The notes under the pieces were generated by a model. That model did no database searches. It worked only from the letters and a program-made list of their open reading frames with translations, and was not told where the DNA came from. This document shows, piece after piece, positions 3,887 through 36,780 of a stretch of DNA of 64,000 nucleotides; position 1 is the first letter of the stretch, and each line of letters begins with the position of its first letter. A program made the translations under genes and the position numbers. Source of the DNA: a virus. The DNA is taken from positions 1-64,000 of the IMG/VR virus record IMGVR_UViG_3300028569_000018. One strand, written 5' to 3'.

Positions 3887-6385
3887 ATGGCAGAAAAAAC
3901 AGTATCCGCTGGGGTATTTACCAATGAAAAGGACCTTTCATTCTTACCACAGGGAGTAGCACAAATAGGTGCTGCAGTAATTGGCCCTACAATTAAAGGA
4001 CCCGCTTTTATCCCAACTATCGTCGAATCGTATAACGATTTCGTACAAAAATTCGGCGATACGACTCCGGATTCATACGTACCGTATACCATTAAAGACT
4101 ATTTAAAGAACTCAGGTAGAGTTACGGTAGTACGTACTTTATTCGAAAACGGGTACAAAATGGATGCCCCGGTAGGTATAGTATTGTCTGGTTCGTATGG
4201 TAAGAAATTAATGGCCGTATTGCATCCTACGCAGATGATTACAAATGAGGCAGCGTATTCATATACCACACCGACATTATCGGTGTTTGAGAAATCAACC
4301 GTAACAACCAATTGGAACCTAGGAGTTTCCGGGTCATTAACGGGGTCATTAGGGAACTTTGTACTGTCTATATCAGGTAGTGCACAGGCAGAAAAAAATA
4401 CGACTGCAAATGTATACTCCGCCAGTTTAGTGTCAACGAATGCTAGCTACTTATCTAAAATATTACCACTTAATCCTAAATCATACACGGCGCCTGCATA
4501 CTTATATAATTTATATGGTAATGCAATTGCATCGGCATTAGCCGCTGATTCGGGTTCTGTAGTATCAGTGATATCAGGTTCATCAAATAGCTGGGACTTT
4601 GCTCAAGATGCTTCGTATGCAACTACTCCGTGGATTACATCACAAAAGACGAACGGGAACATCAAGAAAGAACTAGTACGATTCAGTACATTATCAGATG
4701 GTACAGCGGTAAATTATGAGGTAAAAGTTGCGATTGCTGATATCAAAGCAGCGGGCACAGTTCCTGGTTCAACCTATGGTTCATTTACAGTAATTGTAAG
4801 AGCTGTCGACCAAAGTGCTATTCAAGGAAGTCCATTCACGACAGGTGATGATTCCGATAGCAGACCTAATATATTAGAATTGTTTGATAATGTTAACCTA
4901 GACCCGACGTCGACAAATTATATAGCTCGTAGAATTGGTGATAGATATGTTACAATTGATGCTAACGGAAAAATAACTTATTCCGGTGATTATCCGAATA
5001 ACTCTAAATATATTAGAGTAGTAGCTGACGACGATGTGATAAACGCAGTGAACTCAGCAACTCTAGTACCGTTTGGATTTAGAGCTCTAGTAGCGCCGGT
5101 ACCGGTAGGATTTGTAAGTGGAAGTGATGGAGTAGTTACTATACCAGCAGCATCATATGTAACTGACCAAATAGTAGCGAACTCGTACAGCAAACGTAAG
5201 TATTATGGGTTTGATTTTAGCTTATCAACTACAGATAACTTAAATTATCTAGCACCACTTCCAGTTACCGAAGTACAGACAACAGGTTCTAACGCGGATT
5301 TCTATTTAGGAGATTATTCACAGAATGCTAGTGCGGGCACGTACACAGGGTCGATAGACCTTAGCACAAGTACAGTACTTGATACCCGTAAGTTTATAGT
5401 TCCGTTCCAAGGAGGTTTTGATGGTACATATCCGAACATACGAAAACTAAACGGTTCTAGTATTGAAGCGGCGAATATGCAAGGATTTAATTTATCCGCA
5501 GCAACATCAGCCGGTTATTTGGCATATAAAAAATGTGTTGATGCAGTAAGTAACCCGGATGAATTTGATATCAATATGCTTGTATTACCGGGAACTAACT
5601 ATAATGAACATCCGTTGATTTTGAACTATGCGATGGACTTAGCTCTTGATAGAGGTGATACATTTATTGTTCTAGACGCGGTTGGCCTACCAGGAACGGG
5701 TGCGGTAGCTGCGACTGTGTTATCAGAAGCAGTAAATGCTGTTAATCCAATTGATAATAACTACGCGGCGACTTATTGGCCATGGGTTAAGATACTAGAT
5801 GCCGGAATTAATAGACCAGTATGGGTACCAACCGCAGCGGTGTTGCCAGGTGTGATAGCATTTAGTGATAAGGTAGCAGCTGAATGGTATGCACCAGCCG
5901 GATTAAATAGAGGCGGTATTACATCAGTAATTGATGCATGGACTCGTCTAACTCAAGATGAGAGAGATACTTTATATCAAGCCAGAATTAATCCGATTGC
6001 AACATTCCCGGGACAAGGCGTATGTGTATGGGGTCAGAAAACTCTTCAAGCTAAGCCTAGTGCATTAGATAGAGTAAATGTTCGTAGATTGTTGATAGCC
6101 GTTAAGAAATATATCGCATCAGCAACCAAATATTTGGTATTCGAAAATAATACTGCCGCAACACGTAACCGATTCTTAAATATTGTGAATCCGTATATGA
6201 GCTCAGTACAACAACGTCAAGGTTTGTATTCGTTTAAAGTTGTAATGGATGAGTCAAACAATACACCGGACGTAATTGACCGTAATATTATGTATGGACA
6301 GATATTCTTGCAACCAGCAAAGGCTGCCGAGTTTATCATTATAGACTTTAATATTCAACCCACAGGTGCTTCCTTCACCCAGTAA
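3887..6385 (+). CDS. contractile tail sheath protein (gp18-like)
   Basis: 832 residues. The N-terminus (KTVSAGVFTNEKDLSFLPQG, then AAVIGPTIKGPAFIPTIVES) and C-terminal domain (VNVRRLLIAVKKYIASATKY, FENN, NRFLNIVNPYM, QRQGLYSFKVVMDESNNTPD, IIDFNIQPTGASF) are classic phage sheath signatures. The protein polymerises around the tail tube and contracts on infection. It is longer than T4 gp18 (659 residues), with the excess in the middle (about 130-470), where extra surface domains usually sit. It is expressed from an upstream late-type box and followed by a hairpin that overlaps the next gene's leader. Confidence 0.93.
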   Translation: MAEKTVSAGVFTNEKDLSFLPQGVAQIGAAVIGPTIKGPAFIPTIVESYNDFVQKFGDTTPDSYVPYTIKDYLKNSGRVTVVRTLFENGYKMDAPVGIVLSGSYGKKLMAVLHPTQMITNEAAYSYTTPTLSVFEKSTVTTNWNLGVSGSLTGSLGNFVLSISGSAQAEKNTTANVYSASLVSTNASYLSKILPLNPKSYTAPAYLYNLYGNAIASALAADSGSVVSVISGSSNSWDFAQDASYATTPWITSQKTNGNIKKELVRFSTLSDGTAVNYEVKVAIADIKAAGTVPGSTYGSFTVIVRAVDQSAIQGSPFTTGDDSDSRPNILELFDNVNLDPTSTNYIARRIGDRYVTIDANGKITYSGDYPNNSKYIRVVADDDVINAVNSATLVPFGFRALVAPVPVGFVSGSDGVVTIPAASYVTDQIVANSYSKRKYYGFDFSLSTTDNLNYLAPLPVTEVQTTGSNADFYLGDYSQNASAGTYTGSIDLSTSTVLDTRKFIVPFQGGFDGTYPNIRKLNGSSIEAANMQGFNLSAATSAGYLAYKKCVDAVSNPDEFDINMLVLPGTNYNEHPLILNYAMDLALDRGDTFIVLDAVGLPGTGAVAATVLSEAVNAVNPIDNNYAATYWPWVKILDAGINRPVWVPTAAVLPGVIAFSDKVAAEWYAPAGLNRGGITSVIDAWTRLTQDERDTLYQARINPIATFPGQGVCVWGQKTLQAKPSALDRVNVRRLLIAVKKYIASATKYLVFENNTAATRNRFLNIVNPYMSSVQQRQGLYSFKVVMDESNNTPDVIDRNIMYGQIFLQPAKAAEFIIIDFNIQPTGASFTQ

Positions 6386-6446: not shown

Positions 6447-7304
6447 ATGAAAGAAACGTCAAATTGTGTGAATTGTCTATCCGAATTTACTTGGTATAAG
6501 TACGACCATAAACCGGATAAAAAGTATTGTAGTATCGGCTGTTATATGTCCCATAAGAAATTACTTAATCTAGAACACAACCGGATAACAAAGGTGTGTA
6601 AATTTTGTGCGGCTGAATTTAGTGTTGCTGATAGTGTTAATTGTAATAAACGTGAATTTTGTAGTAAGCAATGCATGTATGATAACCGTAAACATTCGAG
6701 TCATCATATTATACCATGTAATAATTGCGGCGAACCTATTAGTGATTATAAAATTAAAACTACAAGAATGTTCTGTTCACCAGAATGTCAACGTTCTAGC
6801 ATTTGGAGAAGCGAATTAAGTCGTGACCAAATGTTGTACAATAATCCAATGAATGACCCAGCAAAAATTCAAAAAATCAAGGACACCAAAATGGCTAAGT
6901 ATGGTAATCCGAGCTACAATAATCCGGAAAAAAATGTCGAAACCATGATTGCTAAATACGGTGTTAAGTATGCGTTTGATTTACATCCTAGCAATGGTCA
7001 TAGGATATCTAAGCCGCAAAGACTTCAATTTAAAAAGGTATTGGAGCGATATCCCGACGCTATTCTTGAACACTATCTACCAGACGTGCATATTTCGGTT
7101 GATATTTACATACCGTCTCTTAAGAAAATAGTCGAGGTGTATGGTGATTATTGGCATTGTAACCCGAATATATTTTCAAAAGATATGTATCATAATCAAT
7201 TGCATATGACAGCGAACACCAAATGGGAAATTGATTCGATAAGAAAAAAAAAATTAGAATCTGCAGGATACACTGTAGATGTGGTTTGGGAGTCAGAAAT
7301 TTAA
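6447..7304 (+). CDS. EDxHD/Vsr-like homing endonuclease with zinc fingers
   Basis: 285 residues. The N-terminal half has CxxC-type zinc-finger pairs (CVNCLSEF, CKFCAAEF, CNNCGEP, CSPEC). The middle has the NUMOD-like sequence NNPMNDPAKIQKIK. The C-terminal nuclease domain (about 185-285) carries IVEVYGDYWHCNP and ends GYTVDVVWESEI, matching the Vsr-related EDxHD homing endonuclease family. It is free-standing between the sheath gene and a membrane-protein pair and probably spreads into cognate genomes lacking it. It has its own box and a strong terminator, so it is a self-contained transcription unit. Confidence 0.85.
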   Translation: MKETSNCVNCLSEFTWYKYDHKPDKKYCSIGCYMSHKKLLNLEHNRITKVCKFCAAEFSVADSVNCNKREFCSKQCMYDNRKHSSHHIIPCNNCGEPISDYKIKTTRMFCSPECQRSSIWRSELSRDQMLYNNPMNDPAKIQKIKDTKMAKYGNPSYNNPEKNVETMIAKYGVKYAFDLHPSNGHRISKPQRLQFKKVLERYPDAILEHYLPDVHISVDIYIPSLKKIVEVYGDYWHCNPNIFSKDMYHNQLHMTANTKWEIDSIRKKKLESAGYTVDVVWESEI

Positions 7305-10324: not shown

Positions 10325-11167
10325 ATGAATAACACTTCTGATTTAAAATTTACCTGCCCAATTTGTAGTAACAAATATAAAAGTTACGTCGGTGTGAGCT
10401 CGCACCTATCACGTGAACATCACATTGGTACCCCCGCGGCACGATATATGGCGTTTCATAATATCACAGAAATACCAAAATGTAAATGTGGTTGCGGAAA
10501 CGACGTTAAATTCTTCCCAGGAAAAGGCGGCTGGTTTGGAGAATATTTGGTTGGTCACGTATCTAGAACAAATGGTGGATTTCAAACTAAAGAAGGATTA
10601 GAAAAATCAGCAAATACTAGACGCGAACGATTTGCTTCTGGTGAAATTGTGCAATGGAATAAGGGAACACATTACACGGCTGCACAAATGGTGCTTATTA
10701 ATGAACGGGCTAAACGTCCAGATAGACGCGCTAAAATTTCAAAAGCGCTTAAAGGTAGACCGAAGACCGAAGAACATAAAAAGATTATGTTAGTGCAACT
10801 AGCAAAAAATAGAAAAGAATTACTTAAAGGAAATCCATCAAAATTAGAATATACATTCGCGGAAATACTGACAGGATTAGGTATAGAACATATACATCAA
10901 TATAACGTAGATGGCTTTGAATATGATTTCTATATTCCTGAAAAGAATTTATTGCTTGAAGTAGATGGTGATTATTGGCACGGTAATCCTAATGTATATG
11001 ATGAATTACAACTCAACGGTATGCAACGTAAAAACAGAGGATTAGACACGTTAAAAGATATACACGCCAAGAAACATGGATATAATCTAGTCAGAATTTG
11101 GGAAAAAGATATTCGAAGCAATAGATTAACTGTAGTCCAGAAACTAATTGATATCATTAGAGCATAA
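10325..11167 (+). CDS. EDxHD/Vsr-like homing endonuclease with C2H2-like finger
   Basis: 280 residues. A finger at the N-terminus (CPICSNKYKSYVGVSSHLSR, EHH) is followed by a CKCGCG cluster, a basic linker with NUMOD-type repeats (AKRPDRRAKISKALKGRPKT), and a nuclease domain at about 175-280 containing LEYTFAEILTG, YDFYIPEKNLLLEVDGDYWH and GYNLVRIWEKDI. This is the EDxHD arrangement. It is free-standing downstream of the tail tube gene with its own box and was probably acquired by homing near a conserved structural gene. Confidence 0.85.
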   Translation: MNNTSDLKFTCPICSNKYKSYVGVSSHLSREHHIGTPAARYMAFHNITEIPKCKCGCGNDVKFFPGKGGWFGEYLVGHVSRTNGGFQTKEGLEKSANTRRERFASGEIVQWNKGTHYTAAQMVLINERAKRPDRRAKISKALKGRPKTEEHKKIMLVQLAKNRKELLKGNPSKLEYTFAEILTGLGIEHIHQYNVDGFEYDFYIPEKNLLLEVDGDYWHGNPNVYDELQLNGMQRKNRGLDTLKDIHAKKHGYNLVRIWEKDIRSNRLTVVQKLIDIIRA

Positions 11168-30070: not shown

Positions 30071-30820
30071 ATGGCCACGAAAGTAGCAAAAAACAAAGCC
30101 GAGTTACAGGATGTATTAGCCGTAACTATGGCAGATAACCTTAATAAAAAATTTAAGGCAAGTGCGCTTCAAGTAGCTTATTTCCTAGACGGAGACGGTG
30201 CCGAATCCCCGAGTGAAATCAGGGGTTGGGTATCGACAGGATGTACCACATTGGACCTCGCCATTAGTAATAGACCTAATGGCGGGCTTCCTTTCGGACG
30301 GATTGTTGAGATTACTGGATTAGAAGCATCAGGAAAATCATTATTAGCAGCACACGTATTAGCAAACACCCAGAAGATGGGTGGACTAGGAGTGTTCATT
30401 GATACTGAGAACGCATCATCAACAGAATTCTTATCAGCCATCGGAGCGAATCTAAAGGAAATGCTTTATGTACCGTTAGAGACTGTTGAAGAGATATTCG
30501 AAGCTATTGAAAACATTATTGAATCGGTGCGTAAGTCGTCAAAAGACCGTCCGGTAACAATTGTAGTAGATTCAGTAGCAGGTGCAAGTACCAAGGTAGA
30601 AATGGCCGCTGAATGGGATAAGGATGGTTATAATACAACCAAAGCAATTATCTTATCTAAAGCAATGCGTAAGATTACTAACTTAATTGGACGCGAAAAG
30701 ATTCTGGTAATTTTTACCAATCAATTGCGTTCAAGAATGAATGCACCAGCATTTTCTGACCCATGGTGTGTTGACCCGATATCTACTAAGATAACTATTC
30801 GGTATAAAGCACAAGTGTGA
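30071..30820 (+). CDS. uvsX: UvsX/RecA recombinase N-terminal half plus 17-residue N-intein
   Basis: 249 residues. Residues 1-232 are the N-extein: Walker A GLEASGKS (83-90), FIDTENASS, Walker B VTIVVDSVAG and LVIFTNQLRSRM. At Cys233 (codon 30767-30769) the sequence changes to CVDPISTKITIRYKAQV and stops. That is an intein block A cut after 17 residues. The break falls after FSDPW, before the T-T-x-G-G strand that follows loop L2 in RecA/UvsX. The other half is encoded at 31913-32737, beyond an endonuclease gene; trans-splicing would give a 382-residue UvsX (T4: 391). Confidence 0.9.
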   Translation: MATKVAKNKAELQDVLAVTMADNLNKKFKASALQVAYFLDGDGAESPSEIRGWVSTGCTTLDLAISNRPNGGLPFGRIVEITGLEASGKSLLAAHVLANTQKMGGLGVFIDTENASSTEFLSAIGANLKEMLYVPLETVEEIFEAIENIIESVRKSSKDRPVTIVVDSVAGASTKVEMAAEWDKDGYNTTKAIILSKAMRKITNLIGREKILVIFTNQLRSRMNAPAFSDPWCVDPISTKITIRYKAQV

Positions 30821-30840
30821 TGTTTTGACTCCACCGGCTA

Positions 30841-30848
30841 ATATTTAT
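30841..30848 (+). promoter_or_regulatory. late-type box ATATTTAT
   Basis: CTAATATTTATTAGTATATG, 6 nt before the endonuclease ATG. The intervening endonuclease therefore has its own near-leaderless promoter inside the broken uvsX locus. Confidence 0.5.
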
Positions 30849-30854
30849 TAGTAT

Positions 30855-31943
30855 ATGACTTATAAACAATTACCGGTGGACTCATTATTAATGGAGTATT
30901 TTAATTTCGACATTGAATCAAAAGATTCCTCGATTAAAATCAAGGTAAAACTTAAAGATTCTAAAAAGTGTCGAACCGATTTTCCCAAAACACCAAAAGG
31001 ATTGCCGTACTCCGGGGTAACTAAGGAATATTTTATCCATTATATCGATGATTATGATACCGCAATTAAAGTATGGACAGCCAGAAAAACGATATGTGCT
31101 AAGACTAAATTGATTAATTGGTGTATTAATAATCTAGGATTAGATTCTATTACAATAAATAAATTACATACATGCTCAAACGATATATCAACCAAGCTTA
31201 GTAATTCACTAAATGCACACCATGCAAGCCCCGCAGGTCTTTTGACTAAGGAGAAATTAAAAGCTAGAAGTAAAATATGGGCACCGATAATTGGTCAAAT
31301 TAATAAGAAAAAATGGGAAGACCCGGCGTATAGAGAGAAGGTGATGAATATGCGTGAAGATACTGGATTCTACACGGATGTTGTTGAGAAGAATAAAAAA
31401 TGGATGTCTATACCTGAGAATAAAGCTAAATTTGTTGAAGCGTGTAATGAACCGGAGCGTAAAAGAAAAATAAGTGAAAGTACATCAAAACGGTGGCATG
31501 AATGGATGAAGTATAATCCTGAAATAATACGGAGAATAACATACTCTAGCAAAAATAAGCAATACAGTTCTAACGGTATTAAGATGAATAATATCGAATA
31601 TTTGGTAGCTGAATATCTAAATGAAATTCATGTTAATTGGATTTCTGAAAAGGTATTTAATTTTGGAAAACACACATACATTCCAGATTTCTACCTACCA
31701 GAATTTAATATAGTTATTGAATGTTATGGTGATTATTGGCACGCAAACCCTGAAATATTCGATTCAAGTAGAACTATATTCAGGACGCCGGTAACCGTAA
31801 TTCATGAAAGAAACGACCGAAGAAAACATACATTTGAAAGTAACGGATATACGTTTATCCATATATGGGAAAGCGATATTCATAAAAATTTTGAAAATAT
31901 AAAACAATTAATATGCAAACAGATTACATTGAAGAAGAAATAA
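30855..31943 (+). CDS. EDxHD homing endonuclease between the uvsX halves
   Basis: 362 residues. The C-terminal nuclease domain (about 250-362) has EYLVAEYLNEIHVNWISEKV, YIPDFYLPEFNIVIECYGDY, WHANP and GYTFIHIWESDIH, the EDxHD pattern. The preceding 150 residues are basic and helical with repeated W-x-D-P-A-Y-R-type DNA-binding segments. It is a separate ORF, not fused to the intein halves, and overlaps the C-intein start by 31 nt. It probably cleaves intact uvsX and drives spread of the split-intein cassette. Confidence 0.87.
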   Translation: MTYKQLPVDSLLMEYFNFDIESKDSSIKIKVKLKDSKKCRTDFPKTPKGLPYSGVTKEYFIHYIDDYDTAIKVWTARKTICAKTKLINWCINNLGLDSITINKLHTCSNDISTKLSNSLNAHHASPAGLLTKEKLKARSKIWAPIIGQINKKKWEDPAYREKVMNMREDTGFYTDVVEKNKKWMSIPENKAKFVEACNEPERKRKISESTSKRWHEWMKYNPEIIRRITYSSKNKQYSSNGIKMNNIEYLVAEYLNEIHVNWISEKVFNFGKHTYIPDFYLPEFNIVIECYGDYWHANPEIFDSSRTIFRTPVTVIHERNDRRKHTFESNGYTFIHIWESDIHKNFENIKQLICKQITLKKK

Positions 31944-32737
31944 CATTAGCAGAATTTGCATCTCGATTTCTCGGGGTACAAGACCTAGAGTCGCCGGAGG
32001 TTTATGATGTCGGTACATTAGGTATTGAGGTAAAAACATTAAATTCTAAAGGTGAAGAAATATTCACACCGATAGAAACGTTCGTAGTAAAAGAACCGGT
32101 TTCCGAATATTATACGGACGGCAAGATTAAGGTCTCAGCATCGCACCGATTTATCGAATCCGGCAAGGAAGTTTTTGCCAAAGACCATACCGATTTCAAG
32201 AAAGTATCGGGTCCGTTAAATATTGTTGATATAGAAGTTCCTGAATATGCTTCGTTCTTGGCTAACGGTCGGTTAAATCATAATACTACAAGTGGTGGAA
32301 AGGCGATTGCATTTCATGCTAGTGTCCGTTTACGATTAGCTCCGGTAGGAATGATTAAAGAAAAGCGTCATGGTATTGATGAAGTAGTCGGTATTAAAAC
32401 ACAGGCCAAGGTAGTTAAGAATCGTATGGGACCACCATTAAGAAAGGTGGAGTATCCGATATATTTTGACCGAGGCATCGATGATGATTTCAGCTTACTA
32501 GAAATGCTTAAGAAGTATGGTATAGTAAACGGTACATCAGGCAATTACAAATATGTAGATGAATCTACAGGTGAAACGATTCCGTTTAAGACAAAGGACT
32601 TCCGCAAAACAATTGTTGATGACCCTAGGATTAAGGATTTAGTTTACGCTGAATTGTGTGATAAATACATTATGTCGTATAACCCGACTGAACTTACCGA
32701 TGAGATAGAAGTAGAAACTGATTTTGCAGCGGATTAA
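31913..32737 (+). CDS. uvsX: C-intein (124 aa) fused to UvsX C-terminal half
   Basis: 274 residues. Residues 1-124 are a C-intein: EEEITLAEFASRFLG helix, block B-like KVSASHRFIESG, block F VDIEVPEYASFLANG, and terminal H-N at 123-124 followed by Thr125 as the +1 nucleophile (codon 32285-32287). Residues 125-274 are the C-extein, TTSGGKAIAFHASVRLRLAP onward, matching the RecA/UvsX strand after loop L2. The intein lacks an embedded endonuclease domain, which is instead the free ORF upstream. Confidence 0.9.
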   Translation: MQTDYIEEEITLAEFASRFLGVQDLESPEVYDVGTLGIEVKTLNSKGEEIFTPIETFVVKEPVSEYYTDGKIKVSASHRFIESGKEVFAKDHTDFKKVSGPLNIVDIEVPEYASFLANGRLNHNTTSGGKAIAFHASVRLRLAPVGMIKEKRHGIDEVVGIKTQAKVVKNRMGPPLRKVEYPIYFDRGIDDDFSLLEMLKKYGIVNGTSGNYKYVDESTGETIPFKTKDFRKTIVDDPRIKDLVYAELCDKYIMSYNPTELTDEIEVETDFAAD

Positions 32738-32752
32738 ATAAATTAAAAGGTT

Positions 32753-33829
32753 ATGAGTGGTGTACGTGATTATGTTAAATTATTAAGAGAACTTAGACAA
32801 GAAAAGGCCGTCGACTCGGCACCGGATGATAGGGTGCTAATTGTCGACGGCCTTTAGCTCAACAGTTTTATAAGGGTTTTTAGTGCCGTCCCTGTAGTTA
32901 ATGAAGATGGTGAACATATTGGTGGTGTAACGGGATTCTTAAAGTCAATAGCATTTGTAGTACGTGCGGTACAACCAACTCGATTGGTAATTGTATTTGA
33001 TGGTAAAGGCGGTTCTGTTAAGAGACGAGACCTGTATGCTGATTATAAAGCCGGTAGGAAAATTAATACTAAATTCAATCGCCCGGACCATTTAGAAATA
33101 AATGTGGAGCAGGAAATGATGAATATGCGAAATCAATTATCAAGATTATCTCAGTATCTTGATACCCTTCCTATTACAATATTATCAATTGATAATGTGG
33201 AAGCTGATGACATCATTGCGTATATGACTACCAACGTATTTCATGAATCACGTAAAGTAACTATCATGTCAGATGATAAGGACTTCCTACAATTGATTAA
33301 TGATAAAGTTTCCGTGTGGAGACCGGTTACTAAATTAACATATACAGAACAATCTGTGTTTGATAGATTCGGTGTACCGGCATACAATTACATTTTGCTG
33401 AAATTATTTATAGGTGACTCATCTGATAACATTAAGGGTGTCGACGGTATAGCAGCGAAGACATTATGCAAGTACATTCCGGAAATTACTACCGATAAAT
33501 TAACCCTGGATGATATCATAAAGATTGCGTATGAACGTAATCATGATGCTAAGGTTAAGGTGTATCAAAATATCTTGGATAATGAAAAGTTGCTCCGCCT
33601 TAATTACGAGCTTATGCAATTAGCTGATGTGGACATACCCGGTAATGTAAAAAGTATTACACGTGATATTCTAATGAATCAGGAAATTCCCCCAATTGAT
33701 AGATTTCAATTTAAGCGGTTGCTAGCAGAAGACAGAGCCTACAATGTTTTCAAAGACCCTGACGGGTGGCTATTAGATAGTTTCAACTATTTAGCCGGTT
33801 ATGCAAGTATGCGTAACGAGAAGAAATAA
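32753..33829 (+). CDS. rnh: 5'-3' exonuclease/flap endonuclease (T4 RNase H type) interrupted by in-frame UAG; possible +6 hop
   Basis: The ATG at 32753 reads MSGVRDYVKLLRELRQEKAV, then DRVLIVDGL, stop TAG at 32855-32857, then in the same frame LNSFIRVFSAVPVVNEDGEH, LVIVFDGKGGSVKRRDLYAD, EADDII, SDDKDFLQL and GDSSDNIKGVDGI, all PIN/FEN nuclease motifs. Homologs read V-D-G-L-N-S/T-F-I-R, so exactly six nucleotides (CTTTAG) are extra. The catalytic Asp of IVDGL lies before the stop, so a downstream TTG start (32984) would give a dead enzyme. A 13-bp hairpin ends at the stop. A peptidyl-tRNA-Leu hop from CUU to CUC would restore a full 357-residue protein. A broken gene is the alternative. Confidence 0.75.
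32803..32857 (+). promoter_or_regulatory. recoding-type hairpin ending at an in-frame UAG
   Basis: AAAGGCCGTCGAC (32803-32815) pairs perfectly with GTCGACGGCCTTT (32843-32855). An inner stem GGCACC (32818-32823) / GGTGCT (32833-32838) closes a 9-nt loop. The 3' arm includes the take-off codon CTT (32852-32854) and the U of the UAG; CTC follows at 32858. There is no T-run, so a terminator is unlikely. Confidence 0.6.
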
Positions 33830-33882: not shown

Positions 33883-34671
33883 ATGAGTGATAAATTATCA
33901 ATATTTGGGCACTCGTTCCAAATAAAAATTATAGCGGCGTTAATGTCCGATAAAATGTATCTGCAACAGATTGCTGATATTATCGAACCGGCATTTTTCG
34001 AATCAGAAGCTAACAATTGGATAGTAGATACTATCCTAGAGTACTATAAAGAATACAAGGTACCACCGACATTAGATGTATTTAAAACAAAAGCTCTAGA
34101 GATTACCAGAGACGTTATGAAAATGGCGATTGTAGATTCATTACGTGAAGTGATGAAATACATGGATGCTGATGACCTAGATTACATTAAGAATGAAACC
34201 TTAAAATTCTGCAAAAATCAATGCATTAAGAGGGCGATTCTAGATTCGGTAGATGCCTTGAAGAAAGGTGATTACGATGTTATCAAAACGAAAATTGATG
34301 CCGCACTTAAAGCAGGTGAACCGGTCTCAACTGGATATGATTATCTATTAAATGTCAAGCAACGATATAATGAAATCAGCAGAAACTGCATTGCAACTCC
34401 ATGGCCGGTTATAAATGATATAGCAGGTGGCGGCTTTGCAAAAGGTGAATTAGTCATCTTAGTTGCAGGTCCCGGCGGAGGTAAATGCGTAGGACCTAGT
34501 ACTAGTATTGATATTGAATATGAAGAATTAGGAATAGAACTTATTTCTAGTGTAGGTACGAAATTTACATTTTGGATTAATCCATATGATACGTATAATA
34601 TAGATTCGAATGAATTATTAGGTTGGCAGGTTATCAAATTCTTAAAAGATACAACCCCTGATGGTGGGTAA
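33883..34671 (+). CDS. gp41-like replicative helicase N-terminal half plus 61-residue N-intein
   Basis: 262 residues. Residues 1-201 are a DnaB/gp41 N-domain (YLQQIADIIEPAFFESEANN) leading to GELVILVAGPGGGK. Cys202 (codon 34486-34488) begins the intein, CVGPSTSIDIEYEELGIELI, so the break is inside the Walker A P-loop (GPGGGK / ST). After about 22 intein residues comes a 39-residue extension (KFTFWINPYDTYNIDSNELL onward) to the stop. The helicase cannot bind ATP until trans-splicing joins it to the 35602-36780 product, giving about 456 residues (T4 gp41: 475). Confidence 0.9.
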   Translation: MSDKLSIFGHSFQIKIIAALMSDKMYLQQIADIIEPAFFESEANNWIVDTILEYYKEYKVPPTLDVFKTKALEITRDVMKMAIVDSLREVMKYMDADDLDYIKNETLKFCKNQCIKRAILDSVDALKKGDYDVIKTKIDAALKAGEPVSTGYDYLLNVKQRYNEISRNCIATPWPVINDIAGGGFAKGELVILVAGPGGGKCVGPSTSIDIEYEELGIELISSVGTKFTFWINPYDTYNIDSNELLGWQVIKFLKDTTPDGG

Positions 34672-34693
34672 TCTATTTTGTATAATTTTTTAC

Positions 34694-34701
34694 ATATTTA
34701 T
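34694..34701 (+). promoter_or_regulatory. late-type box ATATTTAT
   Basis: TACATATTTATATTAAAG, 14 nt before the endonuclease start at 34716 within the broken helicase locus. Confidence 0.5.
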
Positions 34702-34715
34702 ATTAAAGTAATTGT

Positions 34716-35639
34716 ATGGCTAGTGTAAAAGATGCATGGATTAAAAAGTATGGAGTAGATGAAGGTTTACGTAAATGGAATGTATTACGACCCAAATTTA
34801 ATAGTAACGGTACACCGCCGGCGGGCAAAAACTGCGTTAAATATTGGACTGATTTAGGATACTCTGATGCGGAAGCTATAAAAGAAGTAAGTAGAGTTCA
34901 GCGAGCGCGCAGTCCCAGATGTGTTGAATATTATAATACGAGGGGTATTTTCGACGAACACATGATTGCAGAAAAGATTTCTGAGTTTCAGCGCCGGCAG
35001 TGTCCTAGGTGTATAGAGTATTATATTCATAGAGGAATAGATATCGAAACCGGTAAGCAACTAATCTATAAAATTCAGTCGGAACGTAGTATTAAATCTT
35101 CTAGATTTAATGGAAAACGTCATAGTGCATTATCAAAAAGTAAAATGGCTACTGCGACCAGTATACTTAAACGTCAAGAAATAGAGCTATTAGGTAAAGA
35201 GGAATGGTTAAAACGCAATTTTGGTGATAAAAGTAAAAATAGGGGAAGTTGTATATCAAAGGTTGAGCGGACATTACATACATATGTATTAGACATATGT
35301 AGTATTGACTTTGATATCACACTGAATAAACAAATTCCCGGTACGACATATATCCCGGATATTACTATTGGTAAAAAAATAATCGAATTTAATGGCGACC
35401 GGTGGCACGCCAATCCTAAAATATATTCGGCTGATATGATATTGAATAAACCAGGTGAACAAAGTGTATCGAAATTATGGGAACGTGATTTAATACGCGA
35501 ATCAGCATTAAAATCGTTAGGTTACTCGATTTTAATTGTTTGGGAGTATGATTGGAAACATTCACGTGCTGAATGTGAGATGAAAATTAGAAAATTTATA
35601 TATGATATTGAAGACACGGGTAGTAAAGGAAACGATTAA
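34716..35639 (+). CDS. EDxHD homing endonuclease between the gp41 halves
   Basis: 307 residues. The N-terminal two thirds contain three related segments ending in K/R-C-x-(K/E)-Y-(W/Y) (NCVKYWTDLGYSDAEAI, RCVEYYNTRGIFDEHMI, RCIEYYIHRGIDIETGK), probably DNA-reading repeats. The nuclease domain has KVERTLHTYVLDICSIDF, TTYIPDITIGKKIIEFNGDR, WHANP and GYSILIVWEYDW. It overlaps the C-intein ORF start by 38 nt. It is unlike the uvsX endonuclease in its N-terminal part, so each locus probably captured its own enzyme. Confidence 0.87.
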   Translation: MASVKDAWIKKYGVDEGLRKWNVLRPKFNSNGTPPAGKNCVKYWTDLGYSDAEAIKEVSRVQRARSPRCVEYYNTRGIFDEHMIAEKISEFQRRQCPRCIEYYIHRGIDIETGKQLIYKIQSERSIKSSRFNGKRHSALSKSKMATATSILKRQEIELLGKEEWLKRNFGDKSKNRGSCISKVERTLHTYVLDICSIDFDITLNKQIPGTTYIPDITIGKKIIEFNGDRWHANPKIYSADMILNKPGEQSVSKLWERDLIRESALKSLGYSILIVWEYDWKHSRAECEMKIRKFIYDIEDTGSKGND

Positions 35640-36780
35640 AATTGGCGAACTATTTAACAAACTTCACATCGATAACTCGGTGGATGCCCAACATCTACCA
35701 GATTTTAATATATGGGTAAAAACTCCGTACGGTAATAAAAAAATAATTAACCTGTTTAGGACTGCCCTACAAGAAACATGCACGTGTTACTTCGGTAATA
35801 ATAAAACCTTAGTATGTTCTTTGAAACATTTATTGAAAACTGAGCGAGGTTGGCTTCCGGTTGAATCAATTTGTTCTGACGATATAATTGAAACGGCCTC
35901 CGGAACTACCTATTTAAAATTCTATAAACGACATACCAAACTAGAATCGTTATATGATATATCTGTAGATACTGTTGGATGTTATTATACAAATAATATA
36001 GTATCACATAATTCCACAGCTCTTATGAACATAGGTGCACAGGGATTACGAAAGGGTCTGAATGTAGTATACTTTACCTTAGAGTTATACGAGAATTATA
36101 TTTCACAACGGTATGATGCTATTATCACAGGTATAGCAGCTCAGAATCTAAAATATCACGTAGATGAGATTGAAGCACAGCTGGAAAAGTTACCGGGTAG
36201 ACTTCTATTACAGTATTATCCGACAAAAACGGCATCATGTAATACGTTAAGAGCATATCTCAATAATCTAATTGTCAATGGAACCAAACCGGACATGGTT
36301 TTGGTAGATTATGCTGACTTATTAAAGACCGCGGGTAGAAGCAAGGATTCGCATCACTTAGACCTGGAAAATATCTACGAAGATTTACGTGGATTGGCAG
36401 GTGAATATGAAGTACCGGTGTACACAGCAAGTCAGGCCGGTAGAGCCGCTGCTGACTCAGAAATTATTAGTGGCGAACAAGTAGCCGGCGCATACGCGAA
36501 GATTATGATTGGCGACTTTGTTATATCGTTATCAAGAAAGGTAACAGATAAAATATCAGGTACCGGTAGATGGCATATTATTAAGAATCGGTTCGGCCCG
36601 GACGGATTAACGTTGCCTAGTAAAATAAATATGAGTAACGGCCAAATGCAAATATTCGAAGAAGCTTCTGTGCAGGGTAAAGAAACACAAAAAACTATGG
36701 ATAACGGGCAAGAAGTGCTTAGAAAGACGTTAGCAACTAAATTTAGGGAAATTAACCAAAAACCGGGGGACTTGGGATAG
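35602..36780 (+). CDS. C-intein (137 aa) fused to gp41 helicase ATPase domain
   Basis: 392 residues. Residues 1-137 are the C-intein: KETIKIGELFNKL helix, NIWVKTPYGNKKIINLFRTA, block B-like VCSLKHLLKTERGWLPVESI, block F/G LYDISVDTVGCYYTNNIVSH then Asn137, with Ser138 as +1 nucleophile (codon 36013-36015). Residues 138-392 are the RecA-fold helicase: STALMNIGAQGLRKGLNVVY completes the P-loop, Walker B is MVLVDYADLL, and YTASQAGRAAADSEIISGEQ is a DnaB-family sensor region. It unwinds DNA ahead of the fork after splicing. Confidence 0.9.
   Translation: MILKTRVVKETIKIGELFNKLHIDNSVDAQHLPDFNIWVKTPYGNKKIINLFRTALQETCTCYFGNNKTLVCSLKHLLKTERGWLPVESICSDDIIETASGTTYLKFYKRHTKLESLYDISVDTVGCYYTNNIVSHNSTALMNIGAQGLRKGLNVVYFTLELYENYISQRYDAIITGIAAQNLKYHVDEIEAQLEKLPGRLLLQYYPTKTASCNTLRAYLNNLIVNGTKPDMVLVDYADLLKTAGRSKDSHHLDLENIYEDLRGLAGEYEVPVYTASQAGRAAADSEIISGEQVAGAYAKIMIGDFVISLSRKVTDKISGTGRWHIIKNRFGPDGLTLPSKINMSNGQMQIFEEASVQGKETQKTMDNGQEVLRKTLATKFREINQKPGDLG

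What the first reader, a model, noticed from the sequence alone, without database searches (positions are those of the whole stretch)
30071..32737. UvsX encoded as a fractured gene with an ultrashort 17-residue N-intein
Seen: the N-half ends CVDPISTKITIRYKAQV-stop immediately after FSDPW; the C-half starts with a 124-residue C-intein ending H-N before T-T-x-G-G; a free EDxHD endonuclease with its own late-type box lies between. Known: fractured genes with split inteins and an intervening endonuclease were described from metagenomes, and very short N-inteins (around 16 residues, the VidaL type) are rare and useful in protein chemistry. Inference: this is a new natural member with all parts in genomic context.
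Basis: partly seen in the sequence, partly recalled or inferred. Interest (0 to 1): 0.9.

Follow-up and report, generated by a model that had tools for sequence, protein, structure and literature searches.

The report
Phage uvsX split by an intein
An uncultured phage encodes its DNA-recombination protein UvsX as two separate genes, with a DNA-cutting enzyme gene between them, and the two halves are very probably joined after translation by a self-splicing protein element; the arrangement is a known kind, but this insertion site shows intact, one-piece and split versions in close relatives, so how such splits arise can be tested.

Summary
uvsX is broken into an N-half (30071-30820) ending FSDPW|CVDPISTKITIRYKAQV-stop and a C-half (31913-32737) starting with a 124-residue C-intein ending HN|TTSGG. 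A 362-aa Vsr/I-Bth0305I-like endonuclease (30855-31943) lies between them. The record (102,468 b) holds no second uvsX.

Comparison supports insertion at one codon boundary: intact uvsX (L003, L005) aligns up to base 30766 and again from 32285, and other occupied/empty pairs are 93-98% identical. More than a dozen IMG/VR contigs carry the same fractured arrangement (N-intein mostly 15-20 aa). Others carry the same intein unbroken (132-142 aa, no endonuclease). One pair (L118 unbroken, L119 split) is 98.7% identical downstream of the break. A model of the unbroken homologue (pLDDT 92) matches inteins and puts the break after strand beta2, the VidaL-type position.

Verdict: a new member of a known kind (fractured gene, atypically split intein). 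Trans-splicing is inferred, not shown. The window's endonuclease has Asn where all 14 relatives have Asp, at a column aligning with an Asp of Vsr, so it may be weakened.

Next door, the helicase gene is fractured the same way, and the exonuclease gene between them has a conserved hairpin and in-frame stop (probable recoding, reported in passing).

The parts
30071..30766 (+). UvsX N-extein, 232 codons, ends ..FSDPW; contains Walker A GLEASGKS
   Evidence: Pfam RecA 9.5e-32, PHROG 97 UvsX-like; intact relatives 84% identical
30767..30820 (+). N-intein, 17 codons (CVDPISTKITIRYKAQV, Cys1 = residue 233) and stop TGA
   Evidence: similar tail in more than a dozen split homologues
30842..30849 (+). 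TATTTATT box 5 nt before the endonuclease start (late-promoter-like for this phage)
   Evidence: ATATTTAT upstream of 20/77 ORFs vs about 1 in shuffles; a TATTTAT box is present in 11 of 15 split loci, window included
30855..31943 (+). free-standing Vsr/I-Bth0305I-like homing endonuclease (EDxHD type), 362 aa; residue 320 is Asn where relatives have Asp
   Evidence: Foldseek Vsr 1cw0, I-Bth0305I 3r3p_B TMt 0.81; profile match to Vsr; column check
31913..32284 (+). C-intein, 124 codons, ends NGRLNHN; start codon inside the 3' end of the endonuclease gene
   Evidence: family profile matches Spl DnaX and, weakly, gp41-1 inteins; model of the unbroken homologue matches inteins
32285..32737 (+). 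UvsX C-extein, 150 codons, begins TTSGGKAIAFHA (Thr+1), and stop
   Evidence: Pfam RecA 2.4e-12; alignment to intact uvsX resumes at 32285
30767..32284 (+). whole inserted cassette, 1,518 bp, absent from empty alleles
   Evidence: blastn breaks at 30766/32285 against L003 and L005
33883..34671 (+). second fractured gene: DnaB/gp41-type helicase N-half, Walker A ..AGPGGGK|CVGPSTSIDIEYEEL.. (61-residue N-intein from 34486)
   Evidence: PHROG 19; intact allele L087 reads AGPGGGKSTALMNIGAQ
34716..35639 (+). second EDxHD-like endonuclease, between the helicase halves, with TATTTATA box at 34695
   Evidence: alignment A2, own-record match
35602..36780 (+). helicase C-half: 137-residue C-intein ending VSHN, then STALMNIGAQ
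   Evidence: PHROG 19

Best explanation
uvsX of this phage was interrupted, at the codon boundary W232|T in the L2-loop region of the RecA fold, by a mobile cassette made of a class 1 intein whose gene is itself broken between strands beta2 and beta3 by a free-standing Vsr/I-Bth0305I-type homing endonuclease gene. The two uvsX halves are translated separately, the latter from a start codon inside the endonuclease gene's 3' end. The 17-residue N-intein docks on the 124-residue C-intein, Cys233 makes the thioester, Thr+1 attacks, Asn124 cyclises, and a scarless 382-aa UvsX results. The endonuclease, transcribed from its own late-type box, would cut uvsX alleles that lack the cassette and so spread it by repair. 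Shown by sequence: anatomy, exact insertion, unbroken and split homologues, folds, selection. Inferred: trans-splicing, endonuclease target and homing, timing of expression.
For: Exact empty sites: the window aligns with intact uvsX of L003/L005 up to 30766 and from 32285; L008 (split) vs L009 (empty) 93-94.5% identical with breaks 5748/7037 vs 4200/4201; L103 vs L062 98%, vs L077 96%. L008 and L009 give the same UvsX sequence once the cassette is left out. The same intein occurs unbroken with no endonuclease (L095, L112, L114, L116, L118, L123, L126, L127; 132-142 aa) and the split halves add up to the same length. Invariant block residues incl. block B His, Asp, His-Asn and Thr+1. Model pLDDT 92; top PDB hits are inteins incl. 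split inteins 9hth and 8ubs. Endonuclease fold = Vsr/I-Bth0305I. dN/dS in homologous pairs: C-intein 0.06-0.18, exteins 0.01-0.15, endonuclease 0.19-0.41. Only one uvsX in the record. Split, unbroken and empty states interleave on the UvsX tree.
Against: No biochemical evidence of splicing for any member. Residue 320 of the endonuclease is Asn where 14 of 14 relatives have Asp, so this copy may not cut. The record is 102 kb and may be incomplete, so an uncut copy elsewhere is not excluded. The intein tree is poorly resolved.
Confidence: 0.9

Rival explanations
1. The gene is a broken uvsX (pseudogene) with a decaying insertion, and the phage relies on host RecA or another recombinase.
For: In-frame stop after 249 codons; endonuclease with a changed conserved Asp; recombination genes can be dispensable.
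Against: Both halves are open with no lesion; low dN/dS in homologous split loci for N-extein, C-intein and C-extein; many independent contigs keep both halves and all intein motifs.
Confidence: 0.04
2. The halves work as two separate subunits, or are joined at RNA level (intron) rather than by protein splicing.
For: Two open reading frames with separate starts; phage genes often carry group I introns.
Against: No Rfam intron family in 29-40 kb; translated intein motifs and fold are conserved as protein and unbroken in homologues; the break leaves Walker A in one piece and the L2 region in the other.
Confidence: 0.04
3. Sub-case of the best explanation: working split intein but a dead endonuclease; the cassette is past its homing phase and is kept only because it cannot be lost without breaking uvsX.
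For: Asp-to-Asn at residue 320, aligned to an Asp of Vsr; L122 keeps only a 79-aa remnant and L109/L110 have none, with split inteins still intact.
Against: The 362-aa frame is open and D321 is adjacent; activity not tested.
Confidence: 0.45

Closest known systems
Fractured genes (Dassa et al. 2009, NAR 37:2560; paper not held here, known from citing papers and memory)
   Same: host gene in two pieces with split-intein halves and a free-standing endonuclease ORF of the EDxHD/Vsr type between them
   Different: here with matched empty, unbroken and endonuclease-less alleles at one site; break near the N-end of the intein
VidaL intein (16-aa N-intein, split after beta2; Neugebauer 2017, Burton 2020, described in PMC13014065)
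   Same: Cys-dependent, ultra-short N-intein, same break position
   Different: VidaL sequence not available here, so homology was not tested; splicing of the present intein untested. From memory only: an intein called VidaL UvsX-2 exists and may be of this allele
PolB16 OarG intein (15-aa N-intein, PMC10189870)
   Same: break after beta2, very short N-intein, metagenomic origin
   Different: serine nucleophiles and PolB host gene; here Cys1 and Thr+1 in UvsX
MIJ3 split PolB with HNH endonuclease (PMC6892783)
   Same: split intein plus free endonuclease between halves in a phage
   Different: HNH endonuclease and DNA polymerase host
Flavobacterium phage immuto (MW353177)
   Same: same gene order SSB-recombinase-exonuclease-helicase
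   Different: recombinase, exonuclease and helicase are each annotated as one uninterrupted gene

Membership tests
class 1 (split) intein | Cys/Ser at position 1 and C/S/T at +1 | tested here: met
   C233 and Thr+1, confirmed by empty alleles FSDPW|TTSGG
class 1 (split) intein | block B His, block F Asp, C-terminal His-Asn | tested here: met
   invariant in 26 aligned homologues
class 1 (split) intein | Hint fold | tested here: met
   model of the unbroken homologue L095, pLDDT 92, top PDB matches inteins; the two window halves were not modelled together
class 1 (split) intein | trans-splicing activity | not testable with these tools
   needs co-expression
VidaL-type (S1) atypically split intein | N-intein about 15-20 aa, break directly after beta2 | tested here: met
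   17 aa; break falls between strands 12-17 and 20-25 of the model
VidaL-type (S1) atypically split intein | sequence kinship with VidaL | not testable with these tools
   VidaL sequence not found in the text of the papers read here
fractured gene | two host-gene pieces with intein halves and a free endonuclease ORF between | tested here: met
fractured gene | uninterrupted alleles in relatives | tested here: met
EDxHD homing endonuclease | Vsr-like catalytic fold as in I-Bth0305I | tested here: met
   3r3p_B TMt 0.81, probability 1.00
EDxHD homing endonuclease | catalytic E, D, H, D | tested here: inconclusive
   E248, D278, H296 conserved; last position N320 in the window, Asp in 14 relatives; mapping of motif letters to columns is inferred
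EDxHD homing endonuclease | cuts the uninterrupted allele | not testable with these tools
   needs a cleavage assay

The most novel reading that the evidence does not exclude
One intein allele at a single uvsX codon boundary switches between unbroken and split forms on short time scales, because a free endonuclease cassette that brings its own promoter and the start codon of the C-half enters, or is lost from, the beta2-beta3 loop; split inteins would then be a repeated by-product of endonuclease homing into mini-inteins rather than ancient relics. The near-identical pair L118/L119 (98.7% over 4.7 kb, diverging exactly at the break) and the interleaved states on the trees fit this.
Probability: 0.4. 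Interest if true: 0.65.

Novelty: new member of a known kind. Interest (0 to 1): 0.5.

Why it matters
It adds natural, environmentally common split inteins with N-parts of about 15-20 residues (useful for protein labelling), in a set that contains matched empty, unbroken, split-with-endonuclease and split-without-endonuclease alleles at one site. That makes the open question of how split inteins arise directly testable with natural pairs.

Tried and rejected
The search for related loci with the C-intein alone found nothing and with a 4-row profile only 5 contigs; DNA patterns at the two junctions worked far better. No match of the C-intein or of the unbroken homologue in 50,697 phage records. 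Intron hypothesis rejected. A Pfam Hom_end_hint search of the own record gave no signal even in controls, so it says nothing. Dassa 2009, Burton 2020 and Taylor 2011 are not in the held library. The intein tree is too short to settle the number of split events (at least 3 changes forced). DNA-pattern sampling requires W-CVDP or HN|TTxGGKA, so counts of states are not frequencies.

Full report
OBSERVATION. The window is part of an IMG/VR virus record of 102,468 bases. The N-half 30071-30820 is a RecA/UvsX protein (Pfam RecA 9.5e-32; PHROG 97 UvsX-like) that ends FSDPW followed by CVDPISTKITIRYKAQV and TGA. The C-half 31913-32737 begins with 124 residues ending NGRLNHN, then TTSGGKAIAFHA and the rest of UvsX. 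Between them lies a 362-aa open frame that overlaps the C-half start by 31 nt. Cys1 is residue 233 and the last intein Asn is N124.

EXACT INSERTION. Close uninterrupted uvsX alleles exist. L003 and L005 (84% identical over the N-half) align with the window to base 30766 and again from 32285, so the insert is 1,518 bp at a codon boundary. Closer pairs show the same at higher identity: L008 (split) and L009 (intact) are 93-94.5% identical and their UvsX sequences are identical once the cassette is left out; L103 (split) is 98% and 96% identical to intact L062 and L077. This makes chance or mis-annotation untenable.

A FAMILY OF STATES AT ONE SITE. Two DNA patterns, one at each splice junction, found IMG/VR contigs with an intein at this codon. 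All 20 hits of the N-junction pattern were uvsX. They fall into states: split with an EDxHD-type endonuclease between the halves (window, L008, L083, L036, L035, L086, L101-L105, L107, L108, L111, L121; L119 and L128 on truncated contigs of a more distant RecA); split with only a 79-aa endonuclease remnant (L122) or none (L109, L110); and unbroken with no endonuclease (L095/L098, L112/L117, L114, L116, L118, L123/L125, L126, L127). Unbroken inteins are 132-142 residues; 17+124 in the window gives 141. In L095 the sequence runs RYKV-IEEEITL where L008 has RYKV-stop and M-QYIEEELTL. L118 (unbroken) and L119 (split) are 98.7% identical over 4,753 bp, with the identity starting exactly at the break. 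On the UvsX tree split, unbroken and empty states interleave (12 changes in all; strongly supported branches force at least 8 for the empty state and 9 for the split state).

FOLD AND SELECTION. The alignment of 26 inteins keeps block B His, block F Asp, His-Asn and Thr+1 invariant. A profile matches the Spl DnaX mini-intein (7.8e-5) and, weakly, gp41-1. AlphaFold2 of the unbroken L095 homologue gives pLDDT 92; the best PDB matches are inteins, including the Aes123 PolB1 and NrdJ-1 split inteins. The break lies between strands 12-17 and 20-25, that is directly after beta2, the position reported for VidaL and PolB16 (PMC13014065). Nei-Gojobori ratios in homologous pairs are 0.06-0.18 for the C-intein, 0.01-0.15 for exteins and 0.19-0.41 for the endonuclease.

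ENDONUCLEASE. Its C-terminal domain matches Vsr by profile and by fold, and I-Bth0305I (3r3p_B, TMt 0.81, probability 1.00). Conserved residues E248, D278, H296 and an Asp at column 320 plausibly form the EDxHD set; the window alone among 15 has Asn at 320, so this copy may be weak or dead. That fits the other decay stages seen (L122 remnant; L109/L110 none). The box before it (AATATTTATT) is a phage-wide motif upstream of 20 of 77 ORFs (shuffled mean about 1), mostly in 2.8-24 kb, the region that holds the tail sheath gene, and precedes the endonuclease in 11 of 15 split loci. Neither uvsX half has one. This suggests late expression of the endonuclease apart from uvsX (inference).

MECHANISM. 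Most likely the halves meet and trans-splice to a 382-aa UvsX while the endonuclease, when active, spreads the cassette into intact alleles by cutting and repair. Splicing, target and homing are inferred from family knowledge.

KNOWN OR NEW. Fractured genes, EDxHD endonucleases and 15-16-residue N-inteins are known. This is a new, well-documented member, not a new kind. What is fresh is the allelic series and the near-identical unbroken/split pair. Neither the C-intein nor its unbroken homologue matched any of 50,697 phage records, and the cultured relatives Flavobacterium phage immuto and Microcystis phage Mel-JY01 have uninterrupted annotated recombinase genes in the same gene order.

NEIGHBOURS. 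The helicase gene two genes downstream is fractured in the same way (33883-36780). The 5'-3' exonuclease gene between them (32753-33829) contains an in-frame TAG at 32855, preceded by a perfect 13-bp inverted repeat. The same six-nucleotide insertion (stop plus a codon, nearly always Leu, after a Leu codon) with a hairpin recurs in 28 distinct phage sequences, with TAG, TGA or TAA. Stems abutting the Leu codon are longer than in 40 stop-less relatives (Mann-Whitney p = 3e-9), the codon before the stop is CTT in 23 of 28 against 4 of 40, and the codon after it is CTN in 26 of 28. The TAG set was found with a pattern that required CTN; in the TGA set, where it was free, two exceptions occur. A homing-endonuclease-like ORF (EDxHD or HNH type) ends just upstream in 11 of 28 against 0 of 40 (p = 1.4e-5). 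In the close trio L103/L062/L077 the stop-bearing 5' end is exchanged as a block together with the endonuclease gene or its remnant. This resembles, from memory, the T4 gene 60 bypass with its adjacent mobile endonuclease; a hop from Leu codon to Leu codon would restore exactly the relatives' DGLN motif. Stop readthrough is not excluded. It is outside the finding and deserves its own study.

Noticed in passing
window 32753-33829 (stop 32855-32857; hairpin arms 32803-32815 and 32843-32855): 5'-3' exonuclease gene with an in-frame TAG flanked by Leu codons (CTT-TAG-CTC) right after a strong hairpin; the same 6-nt insertion with TAG/TGA/TAA recurs in 28 distinct phage sequences, linked to upstream homing endonuclease ORFs (11/28 vs 0/40). 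Candidate minimal translational bypass or readthrough element moved with an endonuclease, like T4 gene 60.
   Followed up: partly
window 33883-36780: Second fractured gene: DnaB/gp41-type helicase cut at Walker A (GGGK|ST) with its own EDxHD-like endonuclease; the 61-residue N-intein has a conserved extra stretch (IWxKPW-like) also seen in L095 and L107.
   Followed up: partly
L111 4149-7322 (reverse complement of the locus): UvsX apparently encoded in three pieces with two split inteins: a 13-residue N-intein at Walker A (CVTEDTIIDVIIE-stop) and a 15-residue one at the L2 site; L094 has the Walker A intein unbroken with the same first 13 residues.
   Followed up: partly
L129 5044-9257: Phage RecA with a 13-residue N-intein (CVTLDTMVEVEFE-stop) at the same L2 site plus an unbroken intein at Walker A; shorter than the 15 aa reported as shortest characterised.
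   Followed up: partly
L094 8785-10863 (reverse complement) and L106: C-extein interrupted again just after TTSGG, by an endonuclease ORF, before KALAFHSS; no Rfam intron found. Mechanism of joining unclear.
   Followed up: partly
window, all + strand ORFs: Shine-Dalgarno-like motifs precede only 2 of 69 starts (12% at random positions), and ATATTTAT boxes precede 20 of 77 ORFs; cultured relatives with the same gene order include Flavobacterium phage immuto, so a Bacteroidota host is likely.
   Followed up: partly
window 6447-7304 and 10325-11167: Two more ORFs related to the EDxHD-like endonucleases, each with the ATATTTAT box.
   Followed up: no
window 3887-6385: Tail sheath protein of 832 aa matches a 496-position sheath profile end to end, implying a long internal insertion.
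   Followed up: no
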